Origin: Cornus controversa | Lineage: Eukaryota > Streptophyta > Magnoliopsida > Cornales > Cornaceae | Length of the DNA stretch: 64,000 nt | Assembly: GCA_026545225.1 (NCBI GenBank) | Contig: CM048850.1 | Span: 9,701,501 to 9,765,500, forward strand | Direction of reading: 5' to 3' | Shown: piece after piece, positions 15,196 to 60,424 of the stretch | Position numbering within the stretch: position 1 is the stretch's first letter | How the letters are laid out: each line of letters begins with the position of its first letter | Program-made: the position numbers and the translations under genes | The notes under the pieces: generated by a model | Database searches by the model: none | Told to the model about the DNA's origin: nothing | Seen by the model: only the letters and a program-made list of their open reading frames with translations

Positions 15196-15211
15196 GTAGA
15201 TGAGTCGAATA

Positions 15212-15583: not shown

Positions 15584-15599
15584 AATGTTCCTTTAATCA

Positions 15600-18870: not shown

Positions 18871-19106
18871 AGTAAATCTTCTGGAGATGAGAATAACTCT
18901 TCTTTTGCTTTTGCTTTTGTTACTCATTTGGATCATCTTGATCATCATTCTTCCAAACATATGGAAACAAATTAGATGATGATAATAATTGATTTTCTTT
19001 TCTTCTTTGTGTTTTTTTTTTTTTTTTTTTGAGAGAGAGAGGGGGAACCACAATTACATTTGCAGATTGCAATGAAATGCAATAGAACATTTTTTATTAC
19101 TCTTAC
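18871..19106. other. Intron sequence downstream of CMT2 exon 11
   Basis: Holds the donor GTAAGA at 19106-19101, a poly-T run (about 20 T) at 19012-19031 followed by a GA-rich stretch on the plus strand. No coding signal. Confidence 0.6.
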
Positions 19107-19428
19107 CCATGCCTTTCCAGATGGCATCAGCACTGGCTCCATTGTCGAGTCCCTTCTAACAACGTTATCAGCTCCAACAACAACACCTGGGAGATCCCTG
19201 AAATTTGCTCCCTGTAAAATGTACCAAATATAATAGTAATAATAATGATGATGATGATGATGGTAAAAATGAAGAAACCAAGAAATCAAAGAACATTTAT
19301 ACCAACCTTTCTTTGTGGGATTCGACAAACTCGCAAATAATCATCCTCGAACAATGGAAGAGGCCGATGATCATATAGCGCTGACTTTTCTGCTCTAGTT
19401 GTACCACTGGCCGCAAAACCCATCATTT
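19107..19428 (-). CDS. CMT2: CMT2-like exons 10-11 of the window: region between motifs VIII and IX
   Basis: Exon 19428-19307 (acceptor TCTCTAG, donor AAG|GTTGGT) enters with two bases that complete the codon left by the exon 23 kb upstream. It encodes [20 protein letters not shown] and then RIPQRK. After a 95-bp intron that includes a TAA/TGA microsatellite, exon 19211-19107 (35 codons) encodes [20 protein letters not shown] and [14 protein letters not shown], then donor TGG|GTAAGA. Both segments are standard in chromomethylases and are read without a stop. The family continues with VPDY, RLWWDE and QVGNAVAVPVARALGY. I could not find these on the minus strand between 1 and 19106, so the following intron also exceeds 19 kb or the gene is cut. 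Confidence 0.92.
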
Positions 19429-22400
19429 CTAGAGATAAAGAGAAACATATTGTCAAACACCACAAGCAAGAAGGAGCAGATGTGCAACACCAAAAAATCT
19501 TACAAAAGCTCAATTATCTGGAAGAACAAAGTAACTTAACAGAGAAGCAGATTGCTAGAAAATAGAAGTGCAGGTATGGGTGAAATATAAAGAGAAGACT
19601 AAATGAGTGTGCTCTCTTATAGAGAACATAGGGATTTCTCACTTTCCAGGGCCCATATTGTTATAACAGATTGCTGTCAATTTATCAATGTGTAAATAAT
19701 AATCAGAATTAACTGGCAGAAGATATGTTAATATGATGAGAGCAAGTATGATGGTACAAGTAGGGCTACAAATGAACCGAATTAATGTGCTGCCCACGTC
19801 TTCAGAAAGCTACAGCACAAAAAAGCATATATCAGAAGATCTGGATCCCTCTCCTATGTTGGTAACAATAGAACCTAGAATGTCATATTTTATCACAATA
19901 TGAGCAAATATAAAATAGGAGGTTGGAAAGGCTTTTGAGTGTGAACAACCTTCTTCTTGTTCTTAGGAAGAATGTGTTCTCCTAGCTTGCTTTTTTTCAT
20001 TCTTTGAAGAAGAATTTGAAACTTGCTTAGGTCTACAGATCTGCTCCCACCCCACAAGATGGTACTTGAATTCATCTCCCATGCCACCCCAATAGAAGTC
20101 CCTTTATAGTCTCACTGTTGGAATTATATGCCATTTAAAGCCAATTCTCAATTGTACTTGACATTTTTTTCAATAAATCCGATTTATTTAGTGCTTTACA
20201 TACATATATGGTGAATGCTTGTCTTGGATGATTTAGTGCTTTACACACATGTAAGGATGATTTAGATGCATAGAGAGATTTTCATGCATAGGAGATATAA
20301 ATCATCTGTCTCTTCATCCTTGGGGACTCTTCTGTTAATTGCGGCAACAATACTTTCTTGTACCCCACTCTCAGAGGAATCTTGTCGTCTTACCTCTAGA
20401 ATGCCGTTAATCGAAGCCTCATTCCTGAACTCCTCAATTACATAATCAAAAATGATGTTCACATTCAATGATAGAATTGGGCATTCTATATAGTAGAAAT
20501 GTAATACATTGGTTCATATGAGACAAGAAGGGTTATCTCAGTCACCTGAGTGGAAGACTCAAAAGTATGACACGTTGAATTGAATCATCGATAAGTGAAA
20601 ATTACAATAGTTGTCACAGTAATTTCAATCCTGAGAGAATAATGGAATTTTGTCTTTATTCATGCTTACTTTGATTTACTTAAGTGTCCTAAGGGTAAAT
20701 AAGAGCTAGGTATTATAGGTAGTCATTGAATACAGGCATTGGACCATGTATTCTCAAGATGGAATCTATGCAAAACATTTATTTTGACTAGATTTGTTTA
20801 ATCATAAAAATCTGGATCCAATGGTTTTGATAAATTTGTTTTAGTATTTATTTATTTATTTAATATAAATATTATTTTCACAAACTAAATAGTGTGATCA
20901 AACGAAATAAATCAAGAAGCCAAAAGATGGATTAAATAGTGATTGGACCGATGGCATTATTTTATCCAAATGTTGATTAGCATGGAAGGGTTAATTTGCA
21001 ATTATGGCACGTATTGGCTTTTCAATTCGAGACTTGGAGTGCAATTATTTTCATATAGCATAATACCCCGTTATTTTGAGGTTATTTAAATGAGTCATTT
21101 ATTTATTTAGATTGCTAACTTGTTAGTGTTTTAAATGTTTTAAATTAAATTTTGTCAATGTGTTTATTTATGTTTAATTTATATGCTAATTGTGTGGTAT
21201 TAAATGTTTTGGTTGTTTTAAATAAATGTGTAATAGTTTTATTAAATGATTTGTTTTTTTATATATATAATTTTTTTTGGGTTTTTATTTTTTAATTTTC
21301 TTTTATTTTGGGTTGGGCTTTGTTTTAGTGTGTATTTTGGCTCATAGGGGGGAGGGTATGGGTTTATTTTATTTAGGCCCAAGCACATATGTTTTAAGGA
21401 AGAATATATATATGCTAATATATTAGGGTTTTCTAGAAATTTTATTATACGTATATTTTTAGAGAGAGATATATAGAGAGGAAGAGAGTGAGATACAAAC
21501 CCTAGGGAGGATTTGAGAAGAGGAATTGAAGAGGATCGTGATTTTGGACAAAGGGCTTTGCGTTTATGTGATTTCTACCTTTAATTTCGAAGAGGCAAGT
21601 AACTTTTCTTCTCATCCACTTTGAATTTATAAACTCTTCACCTCTAAAACCATATCTATACGTATATATATTTTTATATATAAAGCATGAATGTATTGTG
21701 TTAAACTAGGATTTCGTTTCTAATATATATATTGAGAGAAACTAGGGTTTTGTTTTTGGAGATATGTATGTCGACCAAAATCTAAGATTTAGTTTATGGA
21801 ATTTATATGTAATGAATTAAATCGTGTTGTATGTATTTACATTTAATTTCTGTGACCAGCGTCGATATCCAGAATTTTTCGACAAACGTATTTTGACTCC
21901 ACGAGACTCATTCTCGATCAAAAATGACCCAATAAGCAAAACCCAGTAGTTTTAGCTACTGGACCCGAAAACCCTCACCTAGGTCTCCAAAATTATGTTT
22001 TTTCATCCTATATGAAGACTGCTGAATATTTCGAGAATTTTGTTCGTGAACCAAATGAACTCAGAATTGGCTGAAATTTAATATTTAGTAGTTTTCAATT
22101 ATTAGGTTTCTTATTTACTTTTTTTAAAATTTTTGGAGAAAGTTTTATTTTTAGCGGTTTCCTTATACTGCTAGTTTCCTTTTGTTTTTAGGTTTTCTTG
22201 TGTTGTTAGGATTAGAATTTCTTTATAATAAATACATGTATTGTAGAAAGCAAATCATGCAACCCAATCAATTATCAAGTATTCGTGAACAGTATCGTGA
22301 ACAGTAACCCGTGAACAGTGTCGATGAACAATATTTTTTTATTTTATAGATTTGACACCTTTCACTTGTCGAAATTAATTTACCCTTATGAATTATTGTT

Positions 22401-22989
22401 ATATTTCATTATATATTACTAGTCATGCTTCTAAGTATGTTATATTGTGAAAGAATTATTTATGCACAGCATGTCAAGATTGCCATACGGAATTAGGAGC
22501 TAACTAAAAAGCAGTCTCACCAATACATATACACGGTATGTCAGGATTGCCATACGGATTTGGGAGCTAGCTAATAAGCAGTCTCATCAATATATATACA
22601 CAGCATGTTAGGATTGCCATACAGAATTGGGAGCTAACTAATAAGCAGTCTCACCAATATATATACACGATATGTTAGGATTGCCATACGGATTTGGGAG
22701 CTAGCTAATAAGCAGTCTCACCAATATATATACATGGCATGTCAAGATTGCCAAACGGATTTGGGAGCTACCTAATAAGTAGTCTCACCAATATATATAC
22801 GGCATATCAGGATTGCCATACGGATTTGGGAGCTAGCTAATAACCAGTCTTACCAATATATATACATGGCATGTCAGGATTGCCATAGGAATTGGGAACT
22901 AGCTAATAAGCAGTCTCACCAATATATATATATGCACGGCAAGTCAGGATTGCCATACGGAATTGGAATCTAGCTAATAAGCAGTCTCA

Positions 22990-23037
<48 letters not shown>

Positions 23038-26000
23038 CCATGTCAGGATTGCCATACGGAATTGGGGGCTAACTAATAAGCAGTCTCACCAATATATATA
23101 CGGCATGTCAGGATTGCCTTTTTATAATTATATTTTGTTATTGTTCGTTATTATGTAAAATTGTTCATCAATTAAGTTATAAGTATGGAATTTGTGTGGT
23201 TTTCATGTAGTTTAGGTCGTTTGGATTGTGTATTTATCATATAATTTAGGTTATTTGGATGAGAGATGACTGGTTTATCAATTCTCTGATTGGGATGTAG
23301 TAGAGAGGACTTGCTCGTGGGTTTAACCCACTCTTTGTTGATATTTTAGGACATAGGCAGTTCCAGCCACAATGTTGAGGGCTTTCTTATTTCTCGTAAC
23401 TCGTGATCATCTATTCTTTCCAGTTGTTCATTGTAGGGACTCTATCTTTAATTATTAGATTTCTTTGGATTTTGTCAACATTGATTTATGGATTTGGTTT
23501 AGGGGTCCTTGGTTTACTTGATTCCTGAGTTGTATTTAATTGAGGATTTTTGGTATATACTTTGAATTAAATTACAAAATAGCTATGGAGATTTATGGTT
23601 CGGAATCTATTATTTATTAGATTTTCTTTCTGCTAATAAATTCCTTCTTTATTGCATCTTGTACTCTATGCTTGTTTATTATCATATGTTGATATTTTCT
23701 AATTTTTGTGAATAAGTTTGGCCAACTTATGCATAGAAATTAGGGGGTGTCACAGATAGTGGAGTTGAAAATAATTAATGGGCTTATTAAATGGGTCAAG
23801 AGTTGAAAATCCATTTAATGGGCCTATTAGAACCAAGTCTTGGATAAGCCCATCTAGATCTCACTCCTAGCCTTACTCGGAGAGCAAGCAAGGAGTTTGT
23901 GTAGGAAAAGGATAGAGAGATGGTGGGCGGCCACCCCTCTCCTATATATGTGTGATGTGTGAGATAGTGTATCTTTTACAAGACAACTCATTCTCTCTCT
24001 CTCTCTAAGTACCTAGGGTTTCTACACAACTCTTTTGGAGACCACTCTTCCATAGCTTGTGGATTTCATCAAGGTCATAGGAATGAAGATTTGGGGGCTG
24101 TTTTATCATATTATAACTTGAAGAAAAGAAGTGTTCTCGCATTGACAATCAATAGTCCGTCCCAAGGTGCTAATATTTTTGTTCTTTTCATAGTGATTCG
24201 CAAAAACAAGTGGGAATTAACTTTTTGCTTCTGCTGTTAAAACCTGTTTTCTAACACTCACAATCCTCCTCACCACAGAAGCCAGAAACAGGAAGAGAGA
24301 TATAAAGTAGGGAGACTCAAAAGGGTACACTTCAGCAAAGTAAACGCCTCCCCTTCGATAGATATTGTTTCTTCCAGCCACCAGCCAACCGCCTCTCAAA
24401 CCACTGCACTACTGGATCCCAAGACATAACTCTCCTCAACTGAACCCCAACGGTGCCAAAATATACCAGCGGAAAAGTACTAAAACTGCAACCTAAGATA
24501 CTGGCCAGCTGATCAATCTCCCCCACAAGCACTATCTCACTTTTCCCATGGTTAATTTTTAGCCTCAAGACCACCTGGAAGAACACCAAGACCCCTCGCA
24601 GAAACCTCAACTGACTCTCATCAGCATCACAAGACACAATGGTATCATCCGCAAATAGCAAATGAGAGATCTCTATCTGGCTCGAAGGATCCTTGCTAAC
24701 CCTAAAGTCTCTGAAGTAACCCAACTCCCCTGCTCTCCTCAATAGCCTATTGAATGCCTCCATCACAATGATGAAGAGGAAGGGAGATAAGGGGTCTCCC
24801 TGCCTCATGCCTCTCGAACTGCCAAAGAAACCAAACGGAACACCATTCACCACCACTCATAATCACACCTTAGAGATACAAAATCAAATCCATCCCCTCC
24901 ACCTCACACAAAACCCCATCCTCTCCAGGACACATATTAAGAAGTCCCAACTCGCATGGTCATAAGCTTTCTCCACATCAAGCTTACACACCACCCTGCC
25001 TCACCACCACTACTGAATATGGCATCCACGCACTTGCTAGCCACCAATATCAAATCCAGAAACTGGCTGTCACCAACAAACGCATTCTGGGACTCTAAAA
25101 TAACCCCATTAAGAACTGATCCTCTTTCTCCAAATCAGACGAAGTGCCAAATCCACCCTCCGAATCTGCCACAACGGTAGATTCAATATCATCTACTATC
25201 CTTCCCAAAAAAATTCAACCCCACTTTATAGTTGATTAATCTCTACCAACACTTTATTTTCAGCTGAACCATCTCAATTCCATCTAGTTCCATCCATGTT
25301 ACTGCGCAATCTTAACTCAGCCAAAAGGGCTGATACCGAGTCTTGCCGAAGCCACAGTTGAACCCCTTGTTCAACACAAAGTGTTACAATTCTGTCTTCC
25401 TTACCAATCATGTAACGCCCCACCCTATCCCGACACAATATTGTCCGCTTTTGGTTCCCCCGGACCAGAGACTTCCCAGGGGGTCACCCATCCTGGGAAG
25501 TCTCTGGTCCGGGGGAACCAAAAGCGGACAATATTGTCTCGGGATAGGGTGGGGCGTTACAAATGGTATCAGAGCCTGACCCAGCCGGAAGTGTGCCGAC
25601 GGGGACGTCGGGCCTCCTAGGGGGGTGGATTGTGGTGACCCTTGTGGGCGGGTGTGATGTGGGCGGGTGCGAGACACTGGGCGAGCTACCACACTGGCAG
25701 GCTACAGGGTGCTCAATCCCACATCGCCTGGGTGTGGAATGGGGAAGTATTATATGTATGATTATCACCCTTCTATGAAACAACGCGTTTTAAAGCCGTG
25801 ATGGTTGTGAACCCACCAGAACTCCACAGTTAAGCGTGCTTAGCTGGGAGTAGTACCAGGATGGGTGACCCCCTGGGAAGTCTCTGGTTTGGGGGAACCA
25901 AAAGCGGACAATATTGTGTCGGGATAGGGTGGGGCGTTACAAATCAGATCCCCCATAGACCCATGGCATAGATTACCAAGAGACTTTTGCCCTATTGTCA

Positions 26001-29000
26001 TGGTGAACACCATCCGCGTATTATTTTCCATTGTTGCGATTCATTCTTGGCCACCATTTTAACTAGATGTCAAGAATGCCTTTCTTAATGGTGACTTGCA
26101 GGAGGAGGTGTATATGGTTCCCCCAACGAGTTTTGCTCTCCTGCTCATTCTAGGATGGTCTGTCGTCTTTGTCGTTCCTTGTATAGCCTAAAGCAGTCCC
26201 CTCGATCTTGGTCTGATCACTTTAACATTGACATGCTCTCGTCTGGTTTCCATTAGAGTACAACTGATCATAACTTGTTCTTATGCCATTCAGGCATTAA
26301 GACAGTTGTTCTCATTGTGTATATGGATGATATTGTTCTTATCAGAGATGACACTGCCGGGATTGTTGAGGTTAAGAGCTATCTTGGTCGCCAGCTTGAT
26401 ATTAAGGATCTTGGTCCCCTTATGTACTTCTTGGGCATTGAGGTGGCTCACTCCATGGCTGACATTTTCATCTCTTGGCGCAAGTATGCTCTTGACTTGC
26501 TTTGTGCTTTTGGCCAGCTTGGCGCTCGTCCTGCTGATACTCTGATTGAGGAGAATCATCGGTTGGCTGATTTTGAAGGAGAGTTATTGTCAGATGTTGG
26601 TCAGTATTGCAGCTTGTTGGGTAGCTAATTTACCTATCCATGTCACGACTTGACATTGCTTATGACGTGAGTGTCGTGAGTCAATTCATACACTTCCTTG
26701 CAGAATCATTGGGGTGTCCGTGCCATGGTATTTTGTTTTCCAATCATAGTCACTTACAAATGTTGATTATCTACGATCAATTTCAGATAGGAGGTCGACT
26801 TCTGGCTATTGCACTACTGTTGGTGGCAGCTTGGTTAATTGGTGCAATAAGAAGCAAGATGTTATCTCCCGATCAAATGCAGAGGTATAGGGCTGTGTGT
26901 AAGGACCGGGGTTATTTTGACCGGTTCCGGGCGATTTTGGACCGGATAAAAAAAAAAAAATTTCGGATTAAATAAATTCCGGAAAGGGCGTGGATATATT
27001 TCTAGATAAGTGGAAGGTGAGTATATGTATATATATATCTATATATATATATATATACATAGTACCTATATTTATATTAAATTATAAATATAGGGGGGCT
27101 TTATGCAATTACGAAGGAATGTGGGCGCATATGCAAGAATACATGTATTTTGTACATGGTGTAGTATATTATATATATATATATATATGATATATATATA
27201 TATATAATGTGTGGACAAGAAAGAGAAGACCACATGTGTGGTCAGCAAAAGAGGAAAAGAAAAGAAGAAAGAAAAAAAAAAAGGAAAAAGAAAGAGAAGA
27301 GAGAGAAATCGGGGAGAGAGAGAACCGAAGGAGAGAGAGAGACCGAAGGAGAGAAAGGGGCCGCCGACTCCAGCGCCGACGGTGGCCGCGGCTGCCGACT
27401 GCTCGGGCGGTCCTTGCTGGGCCTGTTCACGGCGGTTGTGACTGGCCGTGATGGTGGCTTGCGGTGGATAGCAGCGATGAAGGTTCCACGGACTGGGGTT
27501 TCGGTCGCTGTTGGATTCGCTGGTTCGGTAGGAGCTTCAGCCGGCCGTCGGCGACGGTGGCGAGTGATGGTGGTTCCGGCGGTGGAGCTGGGTCCTCCAC
27601 GGTTGGGGTTTGGGGTTGAGTTCGGCTGGGTTGTGTTCGGTCCGATTGAAGGCAGCAGCGACGGAGGTTGTTCGCGGCTGGGGTTGTGGCTGGGTTCGCT
27701 GGCGGTGGGCCGGCGACGGCGGCGGATGGCGGCTGAGTGGTGATTGAAGGTGGTTGTGACGGCTGGAGGAGGCCGGAGTTGGTTCGGTTTTGGACTGAAC
27801 TCGGCTGGGTTCGGCTTGGCTCGGCCGTAGCGGTCTGGTTGGGCAACGGTGGCAGCGACTGGCTGTGAGGGTCGTTGATGGTGGGCTTCAGTTTTGCTTT
27901 TGGGTTGCCGGCGAGGCACTGTTTGGCTGAGGTTGCAGGTGGGTCAGTGGTTTCAGGGCGGCGGCTGTCCGACGAATGGTGATGGCTGGGTTTGGCCGCC
28001 GGTTTGCTTGTGTGGATCTTCGAATGAGTTCTCACGACTGTTCGGACAGCCCACTTTGGTGACTCCGGGCTTGATAGTCGGACTATGGTAGGCCATGGTT
28101 GTGTCGAGGATGGTGAGCGCCGGTAGGGGTGGTGCTTGGTGGCTGGACAATGGTTGTTTTGGCTTGTTTGGCAGCAAGGTAATGGCTCGGTTAGGGGCTG
28201 TTTTAGCTCGAGTTTGTAGAGCTTATTGTGGCTGATTTGTGGGCTCTCTTTGGTTCGGTTGAGCTGAGCTTGGATTCACGTTGTTGGCTAGTAGTGGTTT
28301 CGGGTGGTGCCGAAACTTGTGGGTTTAGTTGGGCAGCCGTAGCGGTCAAAGGTTGCGGTTGTTTGGGCCAAGAATGACGGCCTCGTGGGCTTGAACTCGG
28401 AATTGGGTTATGATGGGGATTGGACCACGACATGAATTGGGCCAAGCGTGAAATTTGAAAAGGAAACGAGATGGTCCAATGGATTTGTTCGTGTGGGCTT
28501 CGACACAGGACTGGACCGGACCAGACTTGGAAATGGACCGATTTGCAGGCACGGACCGGCTGAGAGCGGGACCTAAGGCAAGTTGATTCTTGCCTCTATC
28601 TCCTACGTATATATTTTAAATACGTCGTTAATTTTACATATGTTCTCTTAATTGTTCATATGTGGTATTTATATATATATATATAGGTGCTTATATATAT
28701 ATATATAAGTGTTGTTATAGTATATATATATATGGGTATATATATATATATATAATTGGGATATTGAAGCATGCTAGATTTAAATGCTTGTGAACATTGT
28801 GATATTTATAGGTGTAGATTGAGCCCATGTCAAACATGCTAAATTATTTTATGTTTAGCTATGTGTTATTGCTTATGCATAGGTGGATTTTATGCATGGA
28901 TTGGAATATGTATGTGATTATATGTTGGAAAATGGTAGAGGTGCATGCTAAACATGATTATAGCCTCAATGAACATTTGAGAAGCATGGTTATGCTAAGT

Positions 29001-32000
29001 GTCATATACGTGCATAATACGTGTATAGGTGATGCAATATGTATATGTTAATATATATATGATGATTAGAATGAATGTTAGACACTTGTGATGAATGTAT
29101 GCATTGAATGAGAGTATGACTATATTTATGCTAATGCATGTGCATATGTGATTTATATGCATGATTTAACATGTACGTGACTACATGTGGGATTACATGA
29201 ATGAAATGCATGCTATCTGTATATAGAGAATGTATGCATGGGTGAAGCATGATAAAAATGTGCTAAAGTTGAAGTGTTTTGCATATGTGAGGTGTTGTGC
29301 AAGTGTTGGAACATGTATGTGCTATATGTATTGGAATGTGGTGAAAAGTATGCTAAATACTTCTTTTTAGTATTCATAAGCATGGGTTGAAGCATGAAAG
29401 TACTATGCTAGGTATATATGCATCCATATTGCATGTATAGGAGGGGAATGACACATACGTGAATGTACGTGGGTTTACATGTATAGGTAATTATATGTGT
29501 GGTTATGCGGAGACGAAACGTACACTATGTTTTCTTAAAACTAGCTTGTACATTGTGAAGCACAAAATTGAATGCTTAGTGTTTATATGTTTGAAATGCA
29601 TATATGGGGCCGTCGTGAGGAAACGGGGAAGTGTGGTTGAATTACCTAGAGTAGGTTAATACTCGGGTATGGTTGTGGTTATAAAGTAGGCAAATCACCC
29701 AGAGTAGGTCAATACTCGGTCACGGTGAGGGTGTTGGAGCGGTTATGTCACCTTGGAGTAGGTAAATACTCGGTGACAGTGGTCTATCCTCCTTGGAGTA
29801 GGTAAATACTCGGTGGCGGTGCTGATATGGTCTAACCACCTTGAACCATCTAAGACTCGGTGACGGTGCTGATATGGTCTAATCATCTTGAGTCAAAATA
29901 GGCTCAGTGGCGGTGCTGATATGGTCTAACCACTTTGAGTCACCTAATACTCGGTGACGGTGCTGATATGGTCTAATCACCTTGAGTAGACAAATAATTG
30001 GTGACGGTGCTGATATGGTCTAATCACCAATGGGCAAACCAAAATATTGCCCCGGAAGTATGACGTTGGCGGAGTAGGTCAAGGTCATAGGATGGTTATC
30101 GGAGTTGTCCTAGGTCACATGATCCTCGGAGCGGGCCAATCATGTGGGGTATCGGATGAGGACCAAGAGTGAGAGTATGTGCAAGCTTTGATGCTTGTCT
30201 TATGTATCGGATTATGACCGTGGAAGGTGAAAAATACATTTATGCTTATGTGTTTATCTGTTAAGCATGTTTTCCTGTTTAAATGCATCTTCATTGCATT
30301 TGGGATTGCTACTTGTCGAGTAGGAAATGTAGTAGATGAATTACATTGGTCATGTAAATGCTTTGACATATATGTTCTATATACATATTGGTGCTGAATG
30401 TTTACTGTTCTCAAACATGTTGAAAATGATTTCTAAAATCATGTATAGTGGATTTTGTATGTTCATATGTGCTAGAGTAGCCATATACATCATTGGTTCA
30501 TGCATGCTAGGTGGGGCATGGTCTTAAATATTGTGATATATTTAAGTGCATAAGTATATTTTTGAGAATATGTGAGGATCGACCTGCTGCAGCGGTGATA
30601 GTACGGTTCTACATACCTTGTTGGGCCTTTGAGCTCACCCCCTCCCAGGTTTTGCAGGTATTGCTGGTTTTGGAGTCAGTTGGGGAAACTGATAGCACCG
30701 GTTACAGAGGTAGTGTTTAGATTACTTAGAATCTGATGTATGTCCAGAACATTGGATAGATAGACGTGTTACATTTGGATTAAATGTATGGAGAGGCTTA
30801 TATTGATTCAGTCCCTTCAATTGTATTTATTCATGTGATGTATGTTTTTAATACGGACATTCAAGGACTGAGGCATGTATATTTATGATTGTTTATGCGT
30901 GTTGTAGAAATATTGGGGGGACACGGGCCCAGAAGTGTCCATTTTTATTGTTTAGATATAAATGCTGGGGGGACACGTGCCCAGAAGTGTCCATATAAAT
31001 TGTGAAGCAGGTATATCATGCCAGGGGCTGATTATTTAGAATGGGTCATGCCCGATTTTCGTAAAAATAATAGGAAATTGAATTGTATGATCAGGTGGAG
31101 GTTATGTCGTGAGGGTGATCTCACGGGGTTCACACCTCGGTTTCCGGGCCTTGGGAATCGGGGCGTGACACTGTGGCTCTTGGAGTATGAGTTGTTATGG
31201 CTGAAAACATTAGTGACAGCATGATAGGATTAAGCACATAGATGTTGGCATGCATATGGTTAGTCTATGCCTGCCTTGTTCTCCTAATCAAGATCGAGGT
31301 TGTTGTTTCTGCTGCAATCGGCAACAATGTAGCGCATAACAATGAGATTTGATGTGACCAAGCTTCCCGCAATGGTCACATCACCCACGCTATCGCCCAG
31401 GAGGAGGGTCAATGTTAGATTTCCGAACTGACTGAGGTTAACAGCACAAACTGCCATAGCAAAGCGGTCAGCAAAAGCAGCACCCGATGGATGAGTCCGA
31501 CAACTCTCATCTAACAACACATAAGAGTATGCATCCTCCAGAGTAGGGAATGAAGTCAAGCCCAACAGATGAACACAAGCATAATCAAACTCGTCGTTCA
31601 ACCCGGCAAGAAACTGAAACACCCAACTCAACTCCACAATCCCCCCATATAAAATTGCATCCTCTGGATCCTTCCAAGAGTGGAAGGAAACATAATATAA
31701 CATATCCTCCCAAATAGCACGAAGCTTGGAGATGTAAGCATGTCGTGAATAGAATACAGCTATAGTCAGTCAACTATTCCTTAATTAGGGTTATATCAAT
31801 TATTCCTTAATTAGGGACAGAATCACTGCTTTCCATATATTGTTGCTTTCTTTATTTTTGTTCTTTAGATTATTATAAATTCAGATTGTAGTCACTCTTT
31901 GAATACATAGTAAAATAGTATATTTCTCTCCTCTCTTTCTAAGATTTCTCTCTCAACTTACCCTATATTATTGACATGGTATTAGACCATTAAGATCCAC

Positions 32001-50000: not shown

Positions 50001-53000
50001 CATCTGGACCTGGGGCTTTATCACCTTGACAACTCTGAAGAGCAAAAGTCACCTCATCCTCCTCAAAAGGCCTCTCCAAGCGATCCCTATCCTCCGCCGA
50101 AATCATAGCGAACTCCAAGCCCCCTAGAAAAGGCCTCCATTCTGAAGTCTCCCTATACAACCGCTGATAAAATGATGTCACACCTCTTGCCACCTCCTCC
50201 TCTGTATTCAGAACAGCTCCATCCACTTTAATTTTTCCTATGTGATTGCCCCTCCTACAAGCGTTGGCCATCCTATGAAAGAATCTTGTGTTTCTGTCCC
50301 CCTCTTTTAACCACAAAGCCCGGGATTTCTGTCTCCACGAAATCTCTTCCAAAACAGCAATCTTCTCAAATTTAGTCTTGTAATCCTCCCTTTTCAATCT
50401 TTCCTCCTCCCCCAATGTGAGATCCTGAATTTTTTTTTTATTTTAAATGTTTTATTATTATTTTTATTATTTTATTTTATTAAAATGTTTTATTTTTATT
50501 ATTTCATTTATATGTTTAGGATATGTTAGGATGTTCGGGTTTCCAATTTCAAGTATTGGTTTGATCCCGAGCATTTTCAAAGTTAAAGAATAGTTCTACG
50601 GGATGGTGGGACATGAGGATATGTTAGTCTTTTCCAAAAAGATTTGGGACGATTTCGGCATTTCTTTTAAAGTGAAGGGTATTTCAGTAATTTCGTATTA
50701 TGCATGGCAACATCAAAAATTCTTTGAAAAATAATGGCATTGTGGTAGTTTTAGAGTAAAACGGAGGGTAAAAGAGACTTTTCACTTGGGGGAGTCTAGA
50801 AGCTTCTAGAAGGGGTGGGAGATATAGATGTATATCTATAGGTTTTGAGTTATAAAAGTCAAAATTGTCTTCCTCTCTTCCCCATAAGTTCTGCCAGCCC
50901 TTTCTTTTTCCTCTCCATCTCTCATTTTGCTCTCTTTCTTCCTCCATTGAAGATGCTTGAAGGCTAGGCTTGGTCCAAGGTTATTAGTGGTGGTTAGTGT
51001 TGGTGCTAGTGGCATGTAAGTGTTTCTTTCCACCACTTTTGTCCATCTTTTTCTTCTACTTCCTCTCTTCATCTTCTTTTTCAATCATTGAAGTTTGAAG
51101 GATGAGTGTGGTGTATGGTTTGTAGTATTGGAAGCTTTGGGACTTGAAGACTTCCATTCCTTTCCATTGATTTCTCCATTAAAGCTTTTGAAGAAAAGTT
51201 AGGGTTTCAAATTGAATTTCAAAATTCAATTTGGGGGTTTCTTCAATCCTTCTTGGATTTAAGGTAGGAATGAATTTAACTTCCTTTCCTAATGTTTTAA
51301 GACTTTAGGAAGTGTTAGGTTGAGATTCTAACATGAATTGCAAAATGTGTAAATTAAAGTTTACTTTATTTCATGAAAAATTGGGGCTTTTGTGTTTTGA
51401 GCATGCTAAATGTGTTTAGACCTTGGATTATGCCTATTAGCATTATTAGGGAGGTTTACCATTGAGACATGTATACCATTGGATCACTTGTGCTCTTAAT
51501 TTGAAATTAAAGTACACTTTATTGCATGATAACTCTAGTGTTGTGTAAGAGCTAGAAGTTCTAAATTACTTTTATAGTAATTGTGTTAATGATTGTAAAT
51601 TATAGAAGTCTTGGGTCATCCATTAGTGTCTTGGAATGAAAAGCTTAACTTTTGTTCAAGAAGAGTGTTTTGGGAAAAAGTGGTGAGATGTATTCTTTGT
51701 TTGCTAATGTGTGTTCAAGTATCCTACATTTTACTTAATTAATGTGTAGGAATGCTAATGGATGAATTGGGTTTCATTTGTAGAACCAATGCTAATGAAA
51801 GCTTGGTGCACATAGATGTAGAACCAATGCTATGAGGATAATTATTATGGACATTGTTATTACATTGTTCATATTGATCATTTTTTTCATACTGTTCATA
51901 TCATGTGTGAGTTATGATTTTCGAGAAGTTTTAAATAGTCGGAATTGAAAATAGAGGCACAAAGATGCCTGGTGGTTGATAAGTCCACCTGACTGGCCAG
52001 TGGTTTCACGTCGACCTGCGGACTAGTAATCCGGAATGACGGAATGTACAGAAGGACTGTCTGAGGACTGCTCTGTTGATGCGTGTGTCACGACTATTTG
52101 AGTTACATGTGGTGTGTGTGTGTGTGTCATATGCACTGCATCTAAATAAGCAAACTGTACATTTCAAGTTTTACGCTTTTTAAACCATTATGAATAGGTT
52201 TATTATTCCGTTGTTATGGACGAGTTATGGCTTCATTGTTTATGGGCAGGTTATATTTCATGCTTATGTGTAAATGTATTTTAGTGAATACTTGTGAAGC
52301 ATGTGAAAGGGAAATAGGAACATGTTAGAAAGAACAACGTTGCGTGCATGTTCCCTTAGGAATTCTTACTTCAGTCTGAAATGTTTAGGGGGGGACAGTT
52401 GAGTCATTTCTACTGAGCTGTCGTTGCTCACCCTACAGATGTACCACATATTTCAGGAAATAGGGACGGAAAGGATGTTGCTTGAGCTCCAGAAAGCTTG
52501 ACGTGGCATTTTTCTTTTTTTGGTGTTTTGTAGTTATACTTGCATGCAGTAGGTATAACTTGGATAACATGTATGTTACGTTATTCGGGGCCAGTCTGTT
52601 GGCTTAGTACTTCTGTACTTGTATGACATGGCATAATCAAGAGTTTTGTGATTTATCTTCTCTATTGAGCATGTTTAGTGTATGCTAATTATAGTTAAGT
52701 TGTTTATCGCTTCCGCAGTGACGACTTTGATGTCGGCTCGGGGTCCGGGGTTCGGATCCTTTTCTATTCTTTTCTTATATTTTCTTTTAGTCGTAACTCG
52801 GGTCTTTGAGATTCGGGACGTGACACCCAAACCCTCTAAGCTCTCCTTTCTATCCAATTCTGCTATTTCTCCCACAATCATGTTCTTTCTCCACTCAATA
52901 TTACCAAAGATTGGGAAGGGACCTCACTTCTTATCCCAAACCACCAAAATACCTCCTGCCGCCCCTACCGCATCAAGCGCTAAGAACCTCCCACTACATA

Positions 53001-59000: not shown

Positions 59001-60424
59001 GGCTGGAGAGGCTAGTCACAATTTTAGATCAAGATCAACTCCAAGGGCAACAAAGAGGGAAGTAGCTTCATCCTCATCTTCAACACAAAATATAGATGGG
59101 GAAGAGGCAAACTGAGGAGACAGAAGAGGAAGATATCCCTATACTTGTTAGTGCTGTTCTTAGGGATTGTTAACTGAAAAAATTAAATAAAATAAAAGGC
59201 AGCTGCTGAATTTTCCTGACTTCCTCATTACCTGTGCATCCTTCTACTATTCTACCACATCTTTTCTGGTATCGGAGCTGCCTTGCTACAACAAAACATC
59301 AGAGCTAAATAATATAACTTAACCAACATAAAGCAAATTTATCGATTATGTGACCTAATTGATCTTCAGAAGTTATGGCTAATTTTTGCCTACAAAAACA
59401 TGGGATAGCCAAAAAGACATCAATCAAGGTTATGAGAACTGTTCAAAACAATAAAAGGTTATGGGCATATGCAATAGGAGAGGTCTTTATTTTTCATATT
59501 TTATTGCCTTGGATGTCGCTTGCTTTTTCGAATTATATCAAGGAGTACCAATGACAACTAGCTAGAATAAGGTTTTGTTAAGTTTTCCACATTTCATTTG
59601 AAGATTGAACGAAGCTTCATCTTACATGTATTCACCTGTGTCAAAGTGATTTGATCTATTTAAACAGTGAGTTTCAAATAAAAACACAAGGTCATGTGTT
59701 TAAGTCCTCGAGATTTATATTAGATATGCATACCTGAAATTTAAGCCCACTCTTCCCCGTTTCATTGGGATCACCATAGCAAATATCAACCAGGCGTGCA
59801 ACTTCATATTCCCCATTTTGAATTTTGTCAGTTTTCGAATATATATCCTTATTAGTTGCTCTCATGGCCCTAGAATTTTGTTCATGTGTATTTACAACAT
59901 CATTGACTACATATCGTTTGCAAAGTTTGTCCCATTCCTTCAATAGGTTAAGGAAATCCTCCGCAGGTTCATTTCTAATCTGTAAACACAAGCACATAAC
60001 ACATTATGCCTTCAATTGTTGTACTGCATCAACATGGACACATTCAAATAAAAGAAAAATAATACAAACTTGTGTGTCTGGATGATTTAACTTCAAGCTT
60101 TCACATGCAGATTTATCGATGTCAACGGCCCATTTCTATCAAAAAGGACAAAGAAATAAGGTCATATTACTCATATGCCACCGCATAAATCTAAAAGCAG
60201 ATGTGCCAATAAAAAGTTCTGATAATTTACCGTAGCAAGATCTACGCCAGAGAGTTTGGCACCAAGGGACAACCCAGTTGACATTCCACCACAACCAGAA
60301 TAAATATCTAACAATGCTAGCTCTGATTTGCAAGGTTTACTAACTGATATTTCCTCAAAATTTGCCTTAATACCATTTAAATGAAATGCCTTCGTGCAAG
60401 GAGATGGTGATACATTACAACTAT
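19107..60424 (-). CDS. CMT2: Chromomethylase (CMT2-like DNA cytosine methyltransferase), partial gene, 11 exons with two giant introns
   Basis: Coding exons in transcript order: 60424-60231, 60135-60070, 59979-59734, 43896-43838, 43760-43694, 43525-43196, 43126-43058, 42979-42893, 42807-42720, 19428-19307, 19211-19107. They total 1433 nt, their phases agree at every junction, and no exon has a stop. The order of parts (motif I, chromodomain inserted before the PPCQ motif, ENV, QxRxR) is unique to plant chromomethylases. Peptides such as [32 protein letters not shown] and [12 protein letters not shown] resemble CMT2 more than CMT1 or CMT3 from memory of the families. CMT2 is a nuclear enzyme that binds H3K9-methylated nucleosomes and methylates non-CG cytosines in long transposons. 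The upstream BAH exons and the downstream motif IX-X exons are absent from the window. Exon 11 ends at a good GT donor, so more exons are expected to the left. All introns look GT-AG except one GC-AG (after 43196). Whether this huge gene is expressed cannot be seen. Confidence 0.9.
19429..20030. other. CMT2 intron sequence without recognised element
   Basis: AT-rich stretch from the acceptor of the 19428 exon to the left edge of the LINE. No conserved coding motif was seen. A minus-strand frame near 19893-20087 is partly LINE (GWEQICRP) and otherwise not recognised. Confidence 0.5.
21059..23754 (+). mobile_element. Solo LTR, about 2.7 kb, nested in the Copia LTR
   Basis: Starts CATAATACCCCG (a TG start changed to CA) and ends AGGGGGTGTCACA. 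The flanks are TATAG (21054-21058) and GATAG (23755-23759), one mismatch. The empty site is seen in the sister LTR, where TTTTCATATAG is followed directly by TGGAGTAGAAAATAATTAA (39912-39942). Contains a tandem array (22466-23118) and, at 22081-22270, sequence similar to the gypsy-like LTR at 47510-47813. No coding domain. Confidence 0.85.
22466..23118. repeat. Tandem array, about 66-70-bp unit, 9-10 copies
   Basis: Each unit has GGCATGTCAGGATTGCCATA, CGGA.TTGGGAGCTA, GCTAATAAGCAGTCTCACCA and an ATATATATACAC tail. One unit has an expanded (AT)n of about 20 repeats at 22996-23028. The array lies within a solo LTR, and unit differences are few, so the array has expanded or been homogenised after insertion or was carried by the LTR family. 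Confidence 0.95.
24262..25185 (-). pseudogene. LINE-2 ORF2 reverse transcriptase, partial
   Basis: Frame 24856-24332 (174 codons) starts in [20 protein letters not shown] and contains [13 protein letters not shown], the catalytic FADD box, then [14 protein letters not shown]. Upstream, 25185-24857, remains of [16 protein letters not shown] occur in shifted frames. The sequence reads on past 24332 into [13 protein letters not shown]. This is the most intact part of LINE-2. Confidence 0.88.
25186..25410. other. Unassigned sequence between LINE-2 and the TRIM
   Basis: About 225 bp with no recognised motif. It is the left flank into which the TRIM inserted (AATCA). It may belong to the Copia-C element that resumes at 25947. 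Confidence 0.4.
25411..25561. repeat. Near-perfect inverted repeat (68-bp arms, 15-bp spacer) forming the TRIM 5' end
   Basis: Left arm 25411-25478 starts TGTAACGCCCCACCC. Right arm 25494-25561 ends GGGTGGGGCGTTACA. By eye the arms differ at one base. The spacer is GGGGGTCACCCATCC, the complement of the 5S-like GGATGGGTGACCCCC, so the left arm extends as an inverted LTR piece beyond the symmetry. Confidence 0.95.
25811..25880 (+). other. 5S rRNA-like segment in the TRIM 3' LTR
   Basis: Contains AGAACTCCACAGTTAAGCGT and GTAGTACCAGGATGGGTGAC, close to the A-box (AGTTAAGCGTGC) and C-box regions of plant 5S rRNA. The 5' part of 5S rRNA and the usual end are missing, so this is not a 5S gene. Cassandra LTRs are known to carry such a segment and may be transcribed by RNA polymerase III. 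Confidence 0.9.
25947..26897 (+). pseudogene. Copia-type reverse transcriptase and RNase H (Copia-C), broken, cut by a 4.27-kb LTR
   Basis: Shifted frames give [32 protein letters not shown] and, in 26275-26628, [16 protein letters not shown] (the catalytic YMDD) and [20 protein letters not shown], then [18 protein letters not shown]. RNase H begins with [11 protein letters not shown]-like and [16 protein letters not shown] sequence to 26892. It resumes at 31176 with [16 protein letters not shown]. It is the same family as Copia-B (both have the peptide [10 protein letters not shown]). No LTR was found. Confidence 0.87.
27360..28560. other. GC-rich core of the long LTR, no credible gene
   Basis: A 1.2-kb GC-rich block in an otherwise AT-rich window. 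Frames of 178-225 codons on both strands (27242-27919 and 27427-28035 minus, 27207-27743 plus) are Pro/Ser/Arg- or Gly-rich, of low complexity, and arise from base composition. Together with the TA-rich tracts before it, this could be the promoter and leader of the LTR family. Confidence 0.6.
29660..30035. repeat. Tandem array, about 47-bp unit, about 8 copies
   Basis: Units share CGGTGACGGTGCTGATATGG, TCTAA.CACCTTGAGT and AATACTCGGTG. The first three copies are diverged and of variable length (GAGTAGGTAAATACTCGGTG). Located inside the 4.27-kb solo LTR. Confidence 0.9.
31176..31245 (+). pseudogene. Copia-C RNase H continuation after the LTR
   Basis: Encodes [16 protein letters not shown], the segment that follows AEAEYRA in Copia RNase H. 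It ends at a TGA and the element is lost beyond about 31245, where minus-strand gag sequence of another Copia begins. Confidence 0.75.
31741..31976 (+). repeat. Copia-E 5' LTR
   Basis: TGTCGTGAATAGAATACAGC to TATTATTGACA. Shares most of its length with 35038-35289. The longer 3' copy repeats TTTCCATATA, showing a small duplication. Confidence 0.93.
31977..31990 (+). other. Copia-E primer-binding site
   Basis: TGGTATTAGACCAT lies immediately after the 5' LTR and matches most of TGGTATCAGAGC, the initiator Met tRNA complement. Confidence 0.85.
32083..34900 (+). pseudogene. Copia-E pol: pre-integrase, integrase, reverse transcriptase, RNase H; several frameshifts
   Basis: 32083-32556: [20 protein letters not shown], then [12 protein letters not shown] and [14 protein letters not shown] (pre-integrase). 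32481-32681: [20 protein letters not shown] and LRTDNALE (integrase; a frameshift near 32484). 32721-32924: [20 protein letters not shown] (integrase Glu). 32966-33169: [20 protein letters not shown]. 33344-33628: linker and [20 protein letters not shown]. 33686-34219: reverse transcriptase with [28 protein letters not shown] and [13 protein letters not shown]. 34489-34893: RNase H with [29 protein letters not shown] and [10 protein letters not shown]. In-frame stops at 32681 and 32923 and frame changes at about 33630 and 34219 inactivate it. Confidence 0.92.
35038..35289 (+). repeat. Copia-E 3' LTR
   Basis: TGTTGTGAATAGAATACAGC to TATTCTTGAGA. The expected GACA end appears as GAGA by mutation, which lets the 5-bp target duplication align. 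Confidence 0.88.
35701..36115. other. Unassigned sequence before the nested LTR cluster
   Basis: About 415 bp. The first part may still be upstream gag or leader of Copia-F on the minus strand. No other motif was seen. Confidence 0.4.
36485..39175. mobile_element. Non-autonomous hAT element with nested LTR, 8-bp target duplication TCTCCAAA
   Basis: Terminal inverted repeats TAGGGCTGTAAATGA (left) and TCATTTGCAACCCTA (right), flanked by TCTCCAAA at 36477-36484 and 39176-39183. The 8-bp duplication and TAGGG ends are typical of hAT. Subterminal sequence is rich in GAGCTCG/CGAGCC motifs on both sides. No transposase was seen. Between about 36890 and 37200 lies gene-like sequence (CCTAGCC..., a long CT repeat at 37003-37020, possible exon/donor AAG|GTAACT and CAG|TAAGT), perhaps a captured host gene leader. 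Confidence 0.9.
37434..39036 (+). mobile_element. LTR-like insertion in the hAT element, left end uncertain
   Basis: Ends CTAGGGCATGACA, the same 3' signature as the long solo LTRs elsewhere. TGAGGTCCGGGGATG at 37434 resembles their start, but the true left end may be up to about 120 bp further left, and no target duplication matching TAGAA (39037) was found. It contains decayed repeats of GGAGTT(T)GACCAATCATA (38360-38600) that also occur in the 4.27-kb LTR (30060-30160), so the two are related. Confidence 0.6.
39977..41105 (+). mobile_element. 5'-truncated L1-type LINE (LINE-5)
   Basis: Begins in ORF2 with [35 protein letters not shown]. Frame 40339-40644 continues with [20 protein letters not shown] and 40652-40933 has the zinc-knuckle [20 protein letters not shown], intact in its Cys/His residues. 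A poly-C run (40893-40908) and frameshifts break it. The 3' UTR ends near 41105. Its orientation is opposite to LINE-4 in the same LTR. Confidence 0.83.
41476..42719. other. CMT2 intron sequence with unclassified repeat-like segments
   Basis: 41500-41650 has repeated GCAAGG/CCGCAAG motifs and an (AT)n at 41650-41670. 41797-42153 has open frames on both strands, with no recognised domain; the minus-strand frame (118 codons) is Gly/Glu-rich and may be a LINE ORF1 linker. 42154-42719 is plain AT-rich intron next to the CMT2 donor. Confidence 0.45.
42720..43896 (-). CDS. CMT2: CMT2-like exons 4-9 of the window: chromodomain end, catalytic PPCQ, ENV and QxRxR motifs
   Basis: Exon 43896-43838 completes the chromodomain ([19 protein letters not shown], with the conserved Trp residues). 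Exon 43760-43694 gives [20 protein letters not shown]. Exon 43525-43196 (110 codons) holds the catalytic motif [18 protein letters not shown], then VLMENV (motif VI) and [12 protein letters not shown] (motif VIII). Exon 43126-43058 is [20 protein letters not shown] and three more residues. Exon 42979-42893 carries VVAYDEGQ and DAISDLPP. Exon 42807-42720 carries [18 protein letters not shown] and ends in phase 1 at G|GTAAGT. The exon ending at 43196 has the donor GAG|GCAAGT, the usual GC-AG consensus; using the nearby GT instead would break the reading frame. The next intron runs 23,291 bp to 19428. Confidence 0.94.
43897..45105. other. CMT2 giant intron, left part, mostly unassigned
   Basis: AT-rich intron sequence upstream of the 43896 acceptor. 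At 44892 TAGGGGTGCATACAGTTCGG resembles the end of a small hAT-type element, but its other end was not found. No coding motif. Confidence 0.45.
45106..45240 (-). mobile_element. Au-type SINE, partial
   Basis: The plus strand shows AAAAAGGTCATACCCAGTGC, ACAAGGCTCCCGCTTGAGCG and CCTTACCCCTATTTTTGGAG, then GTCGAACCCGAGACC. On the minus strand this gives GGTCTCGGGTTCGACC, matching the polymerase III B-box GGTTCGANNCC, and the typical Au ending GGGTATGACCTTTTT. The 5' end with box A appears lost or diverged. Au SINEs are tRNA-derived and widespread in flowering plants. Confidence 0.88.
45241..46100. other. Unassigned AT-rich intron stretch
   Basis: No recognised domain. A 61-codon hydrophobic frame at 45572-45757 looks like chance. 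45860-45990 encodes a Lys-rich stretch ([20 protein letters not shown]) of unknown origin. Confidence 0.4.
46173..47509 (+). mobile_element. Ty3/gypsy-like internal region with gag remnant and unrecognised reading frames
   Basis: Frame 46173-46478 starts with [20 protein letters not shown] and [13 protein letters not shown], a gypsy gag motif. It then departs from any gag I know. Frame 46521-46964 (147 codons) is acidic and ends [20 protein letters not shown] and [15 protein letters not shown]. Frame 47078-47467 (129 codons) has no known motif. The region ends with GAAGTGGGGGAGACTAA, a gypsy-type polypurine tract, directly before the LTR at 47510. Protease, reverse transcriptase and integrase are not visible, so it is non-autonomous and may carry captured sequence. 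Confidence 0.55.
47510..47813 (+). repeat. 3' LTR of the gypsy-like element
   Basis: Starts TGTAGGATAGTTTTAG after the polypurine tract and ends about GTAGATTCA, 304 bp, followed by minus-strand LINE-3 sequence. A diverged relative is inside the solo LTR at 22081-22270 (TTTCCTTTTGTTTTTAGG, TTAGGATTAGAATTTCT). No 5' LTR was found to the left. Confidence 0.65.
47814..48389 (-). pseudogene. LINE-3 ORF2 C-terminus with zinc-knuckle
   Basis: The open frame of 192 codons contains [35 protein letters not shown] and [20 protein letters not shown], an intact zf-RVT knuckle (CxxC...H..C), then [13 protein letters not shown]. Upstream the same protein continues through 48400-49040 in shifted frames ([11 protein letters not shown]-like). 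It is separated from the RT frame by frameshifts near 48780-49045. Confidence 0.87.
49046..50415 (-). pseudogene. LINE-3 ORF2 reverse transcriptase, long open frame of 400 codons
   Basis: The frame 50415-49213 holds [100 protein letters not shown] and [12 protein letters not shown]. The catalytic box is FVDD instead of the FADD seen in the other LINEs here. It continues in another frame at 49240-49046 with [13 protein letters not shown]. This is the longest intact coding stretch of any LINE here, so the element is comparatively young. Confidence 0.92.
50416..52825 (+). mobile_element. Solo LTR, 2410 bp, target duplication CCCAA
   Basis: Starts TGTGAGATCCTGAATTTT, ends GATTCGGGACGTGACA, flanked by CCCAA at 50411-50415 and 52826-52830. 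It contains no coding domain; the frames on both strands are chance. A second nearly identical copy starts at 61737. Includes a (GT)n at 52107-52128 and a short A/T-rich start of TTTTATTATTA. Its exact duplication and its position inside an otherwise continuous LINE make the solo-LTR call firm. Confidence 0.95.
52826..53160 (-). pseudogene. LINE-3 endonuclease with internal deletion
   Basis: 53160-53036 reads [20 protein letters not shown], the start of the endonuclease. The next 200 bp, in shifted frames, give [20 protein letters not shown] and [12 protein letters not shown], then pass directly to [20 protein letters not shown], which in LINE-1 lies some 600 bp further on. The later catalytic motifs (GDxN, SDH) are therefore missing. 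Confidence 0.8.
53170..55600 (-). pseudogene. LINE-3 ORF1 (DUF4283-like), broken
   Basis: From 55600: [15 protein letters not shown]-like N-terminus (55542-55330), then frame 55288-54917 (123 codons) with [35 protein letters not shown] and [20 protein letters not shown], matching DUF4283-type ORF1. 54926-54636 continues with [20 protein letters not shown]. The middle (54636-54190) includes ENLLQPSG-like text in another frame. 54037-53313 gives [25 protein letters not shown] and [20 protein letters not shown]. Several frameshifts. Confidence 0.75.
55635..56037 (+). other. 5' terminus of a hAT transposon (CAGTGTTATCAAAGGCGC)
   Basis: CAGTGTTATCAAAGGCGCGC followed by repeated GGCGC/AGGCGCA motifs is the terminal and subterminal sequence of a common plant hAT family. 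The preceding 8 bp are CTCTTGAT. No matching right end was found downstream of the transposase, so the element is truncated. The sequence up to 56037 is non-coding and holds CTT microsatellites (55975-56035). Confidence 0.7.
56038..56575 (-). mobile_element. RTE-type LINE 3' fragment
   Basis: On the minus strand it reads [20 protein letters not shown], then [20 protein letters not shown], the conserved C-terminus of plant RTE-like reverse transcriptase, and ends with GGATGATGATGATGAGAG, the short-repeat tail typical of RTE elements. It lies inside the hAT 5' region. Similar fragments are at 60960-61536 and 61537-61736. Confidence 0.85.
56576..57130. repeat. Pyrimidine-rich tract with (CTT)n and three diverged 120-140-bp tandem repeats
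   Basis: (CTT)n at 56657-56695 and CT repeats follow a CTTCGTCTACTTCT duplication. Then TTCTTTGAAT.TTG.C(TGTC)T..ATT recurs at about 56715, 56848 and 56985, each followed by CCTGCT, GTGCTC, TTAACAG(A)TTTTCTTGAGATTG and a CCCTCTCTCT run. The tract precedes the hAT transposase coding region and could be its leader. The frames in it (such as a run of Ser) are not genes. Confidence 0.85.
57185..59115 (+). pseudogene. hAT-type transposase gene (DUF659 and hAT dimerisation domain), decayed, with two short introns
   Basis: 57185-57595 (136 codons) starts [12 protein letters not shown] and carries DUF659: [36 protein letters not shown] and [16 protein letters not shown], then frameshifts near 57555 ([15 protein letters not shown] follows in the next frame). 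57800-58460, in broken frames, holds [27 protein letters not shown]-like and [11 protein letters not shown] text. A short intron (58463-58543) leads to ADWWSAYG-like sequence and the dimerisation motif [13 protein letters not shown] second intron (58672-58755) leads to [20 protein letters not shown] and [20 protein letters not shown] to the stop at 59115. The usual BED zinc finger after PAWNYC is missing. Confidence 0.87.
59116..59733. other. CMT2 intron sequence between the hAT gene and exon 3
   Basis: AT-rich, no recognised domain. The right end is the donor GTATGC next to 59734. The hAT right end was not recognised here. Confidence 0.5.
59734..60424 (-). CDS. CMT2: CMT2-like exons 1-3 of the window: methyltransferase motifs I-II and start of the chromodomain
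   Basis: Exon 60424-60231 (acceptor TTCTGCAG, donor ACG|GTAAAT) enters in phase 1. It encodes a Cys/Ser/Pro-rich linker and then motif [19 protein letters not shown], the S-adenosylmethionine-binding loop. Exon 60135-60070 (22 codons, acceptor GATAG, donor CAA|GTTTGT) carries motif II with [18 protein letters not shown]. Exon 59979-59734 (82 codons, acceptor TTTACAG, donor CAG|GTATGC) has [13 protein letters not shown], an Asn/Thr-rich linker, and the first strand of the chromodomain ([13 protein letters not shown]). Introns between these exons are short (95 and 90 bp). The next intron is 15,837 bp. The chromodomain of this family reads H3K9 methylation; here it is split across the giant intron. 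Confidence 0.92.

What the first reader, a model, noticed from the sequence alone, without database searches (positions are those of the whole stretch)
19107..60424. A CMT2-type methyltransferase gene over 41 kb long whose introns are built from transposons
Seen: 11 in-phase exons on the minus strand separated by introns of 15.8 and 23.3 kb. The introns hold five LINE-type insertions, several Copia elements, a TRIM, two hAT elements, a SINE and at least six LTRs. Known: CMT2 maintains non-CG methylation on long heterochromatic transposons; in Arabidopsis, genes with heterochromatic introns need IBM2/EDM2 to make full-length mRNA. Inference: the introns are probable targets of the enzyme, so methylation level could feed back on CMT2 transcription or on intronic polyadenylation.
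Basis: partly seen in the sequence, partly recalled or inferred. Interest (0 to 1): 0.88.

Follow-up and report, generated by a model that had tools for sequence, protein, structure and literature searches.

The report
Giant transposon-filled CMT2 gene
This is a real plant DNA-methylation gene, about 114,000 letters long because transposons fill its introns; it belongs to an old second CMT2 lineage that often keeps the amino acid thought to let the enzyme read CHG sites.

Summary
The 11 exons (60424-19107, minus strand) and the two TE-filled introns (15,837 and 23,291 bp) are confirmed, but the gene is 113.8 kb, not 41: four more exons follow a 25.4-kb intron below the window, and three upstream exons lie 31.6-41.9 kb above it. 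Three BAH exons were not found; their interval is partly unreadable (N). The plant is probably a dogwood (Cornus florida protein 92% identical). The gene looks alive: open frames, sound splice sites, dN/dS 0.20 against a second, intact CMT2 on C1 (40 kb, also with swollen introns). The two belong to old sister clades of core-eudicot CMT2. At the CHG-reading position (Arg804 of maize ZMET2) the window gene's clade has Arg or Lys in 29 of 55 rows, the sister clade in 0 of 106. The window gene has Arg with His at the partner position, the state engineered by Jiang et al. as CMT2-V1200R; it may methylate CHG as well as CHH. Feedback of methylation on its own transcription is possible but untested; TE-bearing introns are common in plants, and both intronic Copia elements are antisense.

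The parts
60231..60424 (-). exon with MTase motif I ([12 protein letters not shown])
   Evidence: ZMET2 alignment
60070..60135 (-). exon ([14 protein letters not shown]...)
59734..59979 (-). exon with first half of the chromodomain
   Evidence: PF00385
43897..59733 (-). 15,837-bp intron splitting the chromodomain, TE-filled
43838..43896 (-). exon with second half of the chromodomain
43694..43760 (-). exon ([15 protein letters not shown]...)
43196..43525 (-). exon with catalytic motif IV ([10 protein letters not shown]), ENV and motif VIII; carries His at the ZMET2 Tyr526 position; GC donor
43058..43126 (-). exon
42893..42979 (-). exon
42720..42807 (-). exon
19429..42719 (-). 23,291-bp intron, TE-filled
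19307..19428 (-). exon
19107..19211 (-). exon; last one inside the window, not the last of the gene
1..19106 (-). window part of a 25,351-bp intron that runs on to W-6244 (C6:9695256); next four exons C6:9695212-9695255, 9695060-9695129 (Arg804 position), 9694876-9694979, 9693572-9693743 (stop)
60425..64000 (-). window part of the 35,162-bp interval up to the first BAH exon (C6:9797087-9797189); upstream of it exons C6:9798784-9798818 and C6:9807067-9807417 (ATG)
31741..35287 (+). Copia element with both LTRs, antisense to the gene; family with 1353 first-look candidates in the genome, 40 scored
25788..25896 (+). 5S-rRNA-like stretch, as in a Cassandra-type TRIM
   Evidence: RF00001, 40.3 bits
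47814..55309 (-). LINE remains (zf-RVT, RVT_1, EN, DUF4283), sense to the gene, split by a solo LTR
50416..52825 (.). solo LTR, TG...CA ends, 5-bp duplication CCCAA
57179..57592 (+). hAT-type transposase fragment (DUF659)
   Evidence: PF04937, E 5e-27

Best explanation
The window holds the middle of a functional chromomethylase gene of about 114 kb, the CMT2 'clade B' paralogue of a plant that is probably a dogwood. Shown: its readable exons are open and constrained, its introns were swollen by nested LINE, Copia, TRIM, hAT and LTR insertions, and it has an intact sister gene of the other CMT2 clade on C1. Inferred: the long introns are spliced out, the chromodomain guides the enzyme to H3K9me2-marked transposons, and because it has the CHG-reading arginine (with histidine at the partner position) it methylates CHG as well as CHH, unlike its Phe-type sister. 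Its own intronic transposons are then ordinary targets; regulation of the gene through them is not needed to explain the locus.
For: Exon model, frame and splice sites; domains; 557 of 604 aligned residues identical to C. florida CMT2-like, a predicted protein with BAH, chromo and MTase domains; NG86 dN 0.224, dS 1.095, ratio 0.20 over 598 codons against the C1 paralogue; branch 0.051 against 0.078 for C. florida; clade A/B split in two trees (45 rows: 100/100 and 100/97, 236 rows: 0.92 and 1.0); Arg/Lys at the ZMET2-804 column in 29 of 55 clade-B rows and 0 of 106 clade-A rows; Arg with His, as in the window gene, in 9 of 55 clade-B rows; the residue's role from PMC11540031 (abstract, section 6 and passages); fewer residues before motif I: median 307.5 in 12 clade-B proteins against 549 in 35 clade-A proteins of one search; introns at the same three positions 5.0-25.4 kb in both CMT2 genes, about 0.1-3.6 kb in the three other CMT genes fetched.
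Against: Three BAH exons (C. florida residues 184-290) were not found in the readable sequence of this locus; elsewhere only paralogues at 62% or less matched. Part of that interval reads N, so this is undecided; without them the frame would shift between the first BAH exon and motif I (exon lengths and phases). The Pfam BAH search of the genome hit neither CMT2 gene, intact C1 included, so it is uninformative. No transcript or methylation data for this plant. dS of 1.1 is near saturation and averages over a long time, so recent loss of function would not show. Arg/Lys is absent from 26 of 55 clade-B rows. ZMET2 Met641 is Val here. Methylation levels do not follow the residue simply: Beta vulgaris (Arg) has the highest CHG and CHH of the survey PMC5037628, but Vitis vinifera has the lowest CHH, and the clade-B copy of V. 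rotundifolia has Lys.
Confidence: 0.72

Rival explanations
1. Self-sensing gene: the intronic transposons are methylated by CMT2 itself and their heterochromatin, read by an IBM2/EDM2-type complex, sets how much full-length CMT2 mRNA is made.
For: IBM1's intron is such a sensor (PMC11265718, abstract, introduction and passages); OsIBM2 loss causes premature polyadenylation in heterochromatic introns (PMC7145194, abstract and passages). Between the two solo LTRs at this locus, transitions fall on 13 of 157 CG/CHG cytosines against 16 of 698 CHH cytosines (odds ratio 3.8, p 8e-4; ends used there 2 and 7 bp inside those read), as methylated DNA would give. Sense-strand AATAAA is not depleted in three of four long introns (21/11, 36/18, 24/19 sense/antisense; 17/24 in the fourth).
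Against: No methylation or transcript data. CpG observed/expected of the four long introns (0.47-0.61) lies between short introns (0.28) and about that of exons (0.59), so it gives no footprint of its own; CHG is 0.77-0.95 against 0.85 in exons and 1.26 in 2 kb of short introns. The Copia LTR pair has too few changes to tell (9 transitions). The Copia elements are antisense. The listings of the paper searches show no report of such control of CMT2. A second CMT2 would buffer any loop.
Confidence: 0.15
2. Recently dead copy: the BAH exons are gone and the C1 gene does all the work.
For: Three BAH exons not found; an intact sister gene exists.
Against: 18 readable exons without stop or broken splice site; slow, constrained evolution; part of the interval is unreadable; predicted C. 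florida orthologue with BAH domain.
Confidence: 0.12
3. Assembly artefact: exons of one gene torn apart by wrongly placed repeats.
For: Repeat-rich interval with one run of N upstream of the window.
Against: Exon order and strand agree over 114 kb; no N in the window; the C1 paralogue has long introns at the same positions without any N in the 80 kb fetched.
Confidence: 0.03

Closest known systems
CMT2 of Arabidopsis and other higher angiosperms (PMC5410703, passages; PMC11540031, abstract, section 6 and passages)
   Same: BAH-chromo-MTase chromomethylase of the CMT2 branch; catalytic motifs and chromodomain cage positions kept (Tyr/Trp/Tyr; the cage numbering is recalled)
   Different: Arg instead of Val/Phe/Cys at the CHG-reading position; short N-terminus with one RRSxR motif; 114-kb gene
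Engineered AtCMT2 V1200R (PMC11540031)
   Same: Arg at the 1200 equivalent with His at the 924 equivalent
   Different: here natural, and in a separate old clade; activity not measured
CMT3/ZMET2
   Same: Y776, R804 and H808 equivalents kept
   Different: groups with CMT2, not with the three CMT3/CMT1-like genes of its own genome
IBM1 methylation-sensing intron; rice genes with heterochromatic introns (PMC11265718, PMC7145194)
   Same: a chromatin-modifier gene with long TE-bearing introns
   Different: no evidence here of methylation or isoform switching; introns of 15.8 to 35 kb

Membership tests
CMT2 | C5 methyltransferase with chromodomain between motifs I and IV | tested here: met
CMT2 | N-terminal BAH domain | tested here: inconclusive
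   first BAH exon present; three others not found, interval partly N
CMT2 | groups with CMT2 apart from CMT1/CMT3/ZMET | tested here: met
CMT2 | CHG-reading arginine replaced (reported for higher angiosperms, not for Amborella; so not strictly defining) | tested here: not met
   Arg present
CMT2 | long N-terminus with repeated RRSxR motifs (common, not strictly defining) | tested here: not met
   117-aa first exon, one motif; short in the clade-B rows of one search
CMT2 | CHH methylation of long heterochromatic TEs | not testable with these tools
   needs methylomes or enzyme assay
IBM1-type intronic heterochromatin sensor | intron carries non-CG methylation/H3K9me2 | not testable with these tools
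   only an indirect CG/CHG transition excess in two solo LTRs
IBM1-type intronic heterochromatin sensor | methylation-dependent short and long mRNAs via IBM2/EDM2 | not testable with these tools
   no RNA data

The most novel reading that the evidence does not exclude
Core eudicots carry a second, old CMT2 lineage (clade B) with a short N-terminus and, in about half of its members, an arginine or lysine at the CHG-reading position, a natural counterpart of the engineered CMT2-V1200R. It would be a third, CMT3-like non-CG methyltransferase in many asterids, Caryophyllales, Vitis and Saxifragales, overlooked because it seems rare in rosids, where the model plants are (the only named rosid among the clade-B rows is Oxalis; absence from Arabidopsis was not tested). 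Whether the arginine was kept or regained is open. In this plant its gene has meanwhile grown to 114 kb out of the very transposons it should methylate.
Probability: 0.5. Interest if true: 0.8.

Novelty: new variant of a known kind. Interest (0 to 1): 0.62.

Why it matters
The published account has the CHG-reading arginine replaced in CMT2 of higher angiosperms, explaining the split of labour CMT3 = CHG, CMT2 = CHH. A clade in which half the members have Arg or Lys there, beside a sister clade in which none of 106 rows has it, gives a natural test of that account; 14 named species have both genes, 7 of them with Arg or Lys in the clade-B copy. The locus also shows a chromatin gene that has stayed under selection while its introns grew to over 100 kb, much of it transposon.

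Tried and rejected
A 41-kb gene: rejected, it runs on both sides. A relic beside an intact copy: judged unlikely. CpG depletion as a footprint of intron methylation: not informative. tRNA-derived SINE: nothing seen. A plasmid search with the motif IV exon gave bacterial methyltransferases, all below 60% identity. Pfam gave nothing for 10 of the 20 intron ORFs tried. The HMM scan was meant to use four paralogues, but its inner BLAST failed, so its profiles rest on C1 alone and its output was cut; the tblastn covers the same question. The first count of N-termini dropped most rows by a motif filter and was replaced (35 of 41 clade-A, 12 of 14 clade-B and 23 of 64 other rows used; the rest lack a start Met or the SGCGG string). 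Kept or regained arginine: parsimony gives 4 changes and leaves the clade-B root ambiguous, with loss at the monocot-eudicot node and regain in clade B as one shortest path. One of 237 rows was dropped from the large tree for fewer than 350 aligned residues. No structure prediction was run.

Full report
The source. The window is C6:9701501-9765500 of a 771.7-Mb plant genome in 61 contigs. The best protein match is Cornus florida CMT2-like isoform X2 (92% over the 607-aa product). So the plant is probably a dogwood or close kin; that a Cornus controversa assembly has about this size is recalled, and the passages seen in one Cornus genome paper do not give the figure (PMC12860560). W below means window coordinate, W = C6 position - 9701500, and may be below 1 or above 64000.

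The observation. All 11 exons claimed are there, with the stated ends (60424 and 19107), and the two long introns are 15,837 and 23,291 bp. The frame is open throughout; acceptors are AG, donors GT except GC after 43196 and after the first BAH exon outside the window, both GCAAGT. The product carries motif I, chromodomain, PCQ motif IV, ENV and later motifs in the order of ZMET2.

The gene is far longer than reported. A Pfam methylase search of the genome hit the C-terminal motif 6.6 kb below the window. After a third giant intron (25,351 bp) four exons follow, W-6245 to W-7928, with the stop. Upstream, the first BAH exon (W95587-95689) and a small linker exon (W97284-97318) were found, and the start exon with ATG at W105917, 117 codons, 94 of 117 residues identical to C. 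florida. Start to stop is 113,846 bp.

What is missing. C. florida residues 184-290 (three BAH exons) have no match in the readable sequence between W60424 and W95587, nor closely elsewhere: the best is the C1 paralogue at 62%. Part of that interval reads N. Whether the exons are there cannot be told; without them the frame shifts, so they decide whether the gene can make the normal protein. The genome-wide Pfam BAH search missed even the intact C1 gene, because exons are scored one by one, and does not help.

A second CMT2. C1:76224575 to about 76264470 (minus) holds an intact CMT2: 21 exons in one frame, GT-AG throughout, with a long N-terminus. Its introns at the homologous positions are also long (7,947, 12,060 and 4,992 bp). 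In the three other CMT genes fetched these introns measure about 0.1 to 3.6 kb; from motif I to the end two of them span 7.9 and 4.9 kb (the third had no credible last exon in the stretch held), against 68.4 and 29.5 kb for the two CMT2 genes. So intron growth marks both CMT2 genes at set positions. I have no genome-wide baseline of intron length.

Is it alive? Between the paralogues, dN is 0.224 and dS 1.095 over 598 codons, ratio 0.20. In the tree of 45 proteins the window gene joins C. florida (100/99) and has the shorter branch, 0.051 against 0.078. Some clade-B relatives come from contigs of 2.7-2.9 kb carrying open frames of 840-849 aa (P0014, P0020, P0044), which look like cDNA (inference), so such genes are probably transcribed in other plants.

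Two CMT2 clades. With 231 fetched relatives plus own genes and ZMET2 (236 of 237 rows kept), core-eudicot CMT2 falls into clade A (106 rows, with the C1 gene) and clade B (55 rows, with the window gene), support 0.92 and 1.0; the 45-row IQ-TREE gives 100/100 and 100/97. Fourteen named species have members in both (names; clades). Rows are the best 120 of each of three searches (4321, 1307 and 979 proteins passed), so sampling is not even.

The CHG-reading residue. Jiang et al. (PMC11540031; abstract, section 6 and passages seen) report that ZMET2 Arg804 (AtCMT3 Arg745) contacts the +2 guanine of CHG, that it is replaced in CMT2 of higher angiosperms but kept in Amborella, and that AtCMT2 V1200R gains CHG activity. 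The numbering was checked on the 7UBU chain: both Tyr526 and Arg804 fall where the paper puts them. At this column clade A has R or K in 0 of 106, clade B in 29 of 55 (R 21, K 8), the remaining 75 rows R in 9 (CMT3 types, ZMET2, Nymphaea, Amborella, Cinnamomum). The window gene has Arg, with His at the Tyr526 place, a pair found in 9 of 55 clade-B rows; its C1 sister has Phe and Tyr. Arg is not universal in clade B: of the rows named as Lamiales 10 of 13 have Phe, of the Asteraceae 6 of 9 have Thr (residues, names). Clade-B proteins also have a shorter region before motif I (median 307.5, 12 of 14 rows used, against 549, 35 of 41). The listings of three paper searches show no account of this split; Bewick et al. 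(PMC5410703, passages only) mention multiple CMT2 copies without it in what I saw. That is not proof that none exists.

The introns. In the two window introns tblastn clusters give five LINE stretches and two Copia elements, supported by Pfam. Four of five LINE stretches lie in the gene's sense, both Copia elements and the hAT fragment antisense. The Copia family is abundant (1353 first-look candidates, 40 scored). A 2.4-kb solo LTR at 50416-52825 and another at 61737-64146 are 97% identical, each with its own 5-bp duplication. All this is ordinary TE nesting.

Feedback? Precedents are real: IBM1's intron (PMC11265718) and OsIBM2-dependent genes (PMC7145194). For this locus there is only the transition excess at CG/CHG sites between the two solo LTRs (p 8e-4), which says that this LTR family was methylated somewhere, not that the gene senses it. 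CpG depletion does not set the long introns apart. I rate the loop at 0.15.

Verdict. Observation partly confirmed, extent corrected from 41 to 114 kb; CMT2 identity right; the best new lead is not the introns but the enzyme: a natural Arg-type CMT2 of an old second clade.

Noticed in passing
window 50416-52825 and 61737-64000 (runs on 146 bp beyond the window): Two solo LTRs of one family, 97% identical, with different 5-bp duplications (CCCAA, GTGTA); both lack about 500 bp that many other listed genome copies have at the same point. Direct repeats flanking three exons; recombination between them would remove motif I.
   Followed up: partly
L026/L015 (C1:76234332-76239802): A Copia of the same family as window 31741-35287 sits, in the other orientation, in the homologous intron of the C1 CMT2 gene.
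   Followed up: partly
window 22457-23118 and 29809-30043: Tandem repeats of about 67-bp and 47-bp units inside the 23.3-kb intron.
   Followed up: no
G000 C4:56449350-56455176 and C4:66353628-66357436: Two loci with several BAH and methylase matches, probably two MET1 genes.
   Followed up: no
window 43196 and W95587 (C6:9797087): Two GC-AG introns (GCAAGT donors) in this gene where the C1 paralogue has GT.
   Followed up: no
   Followed up: no
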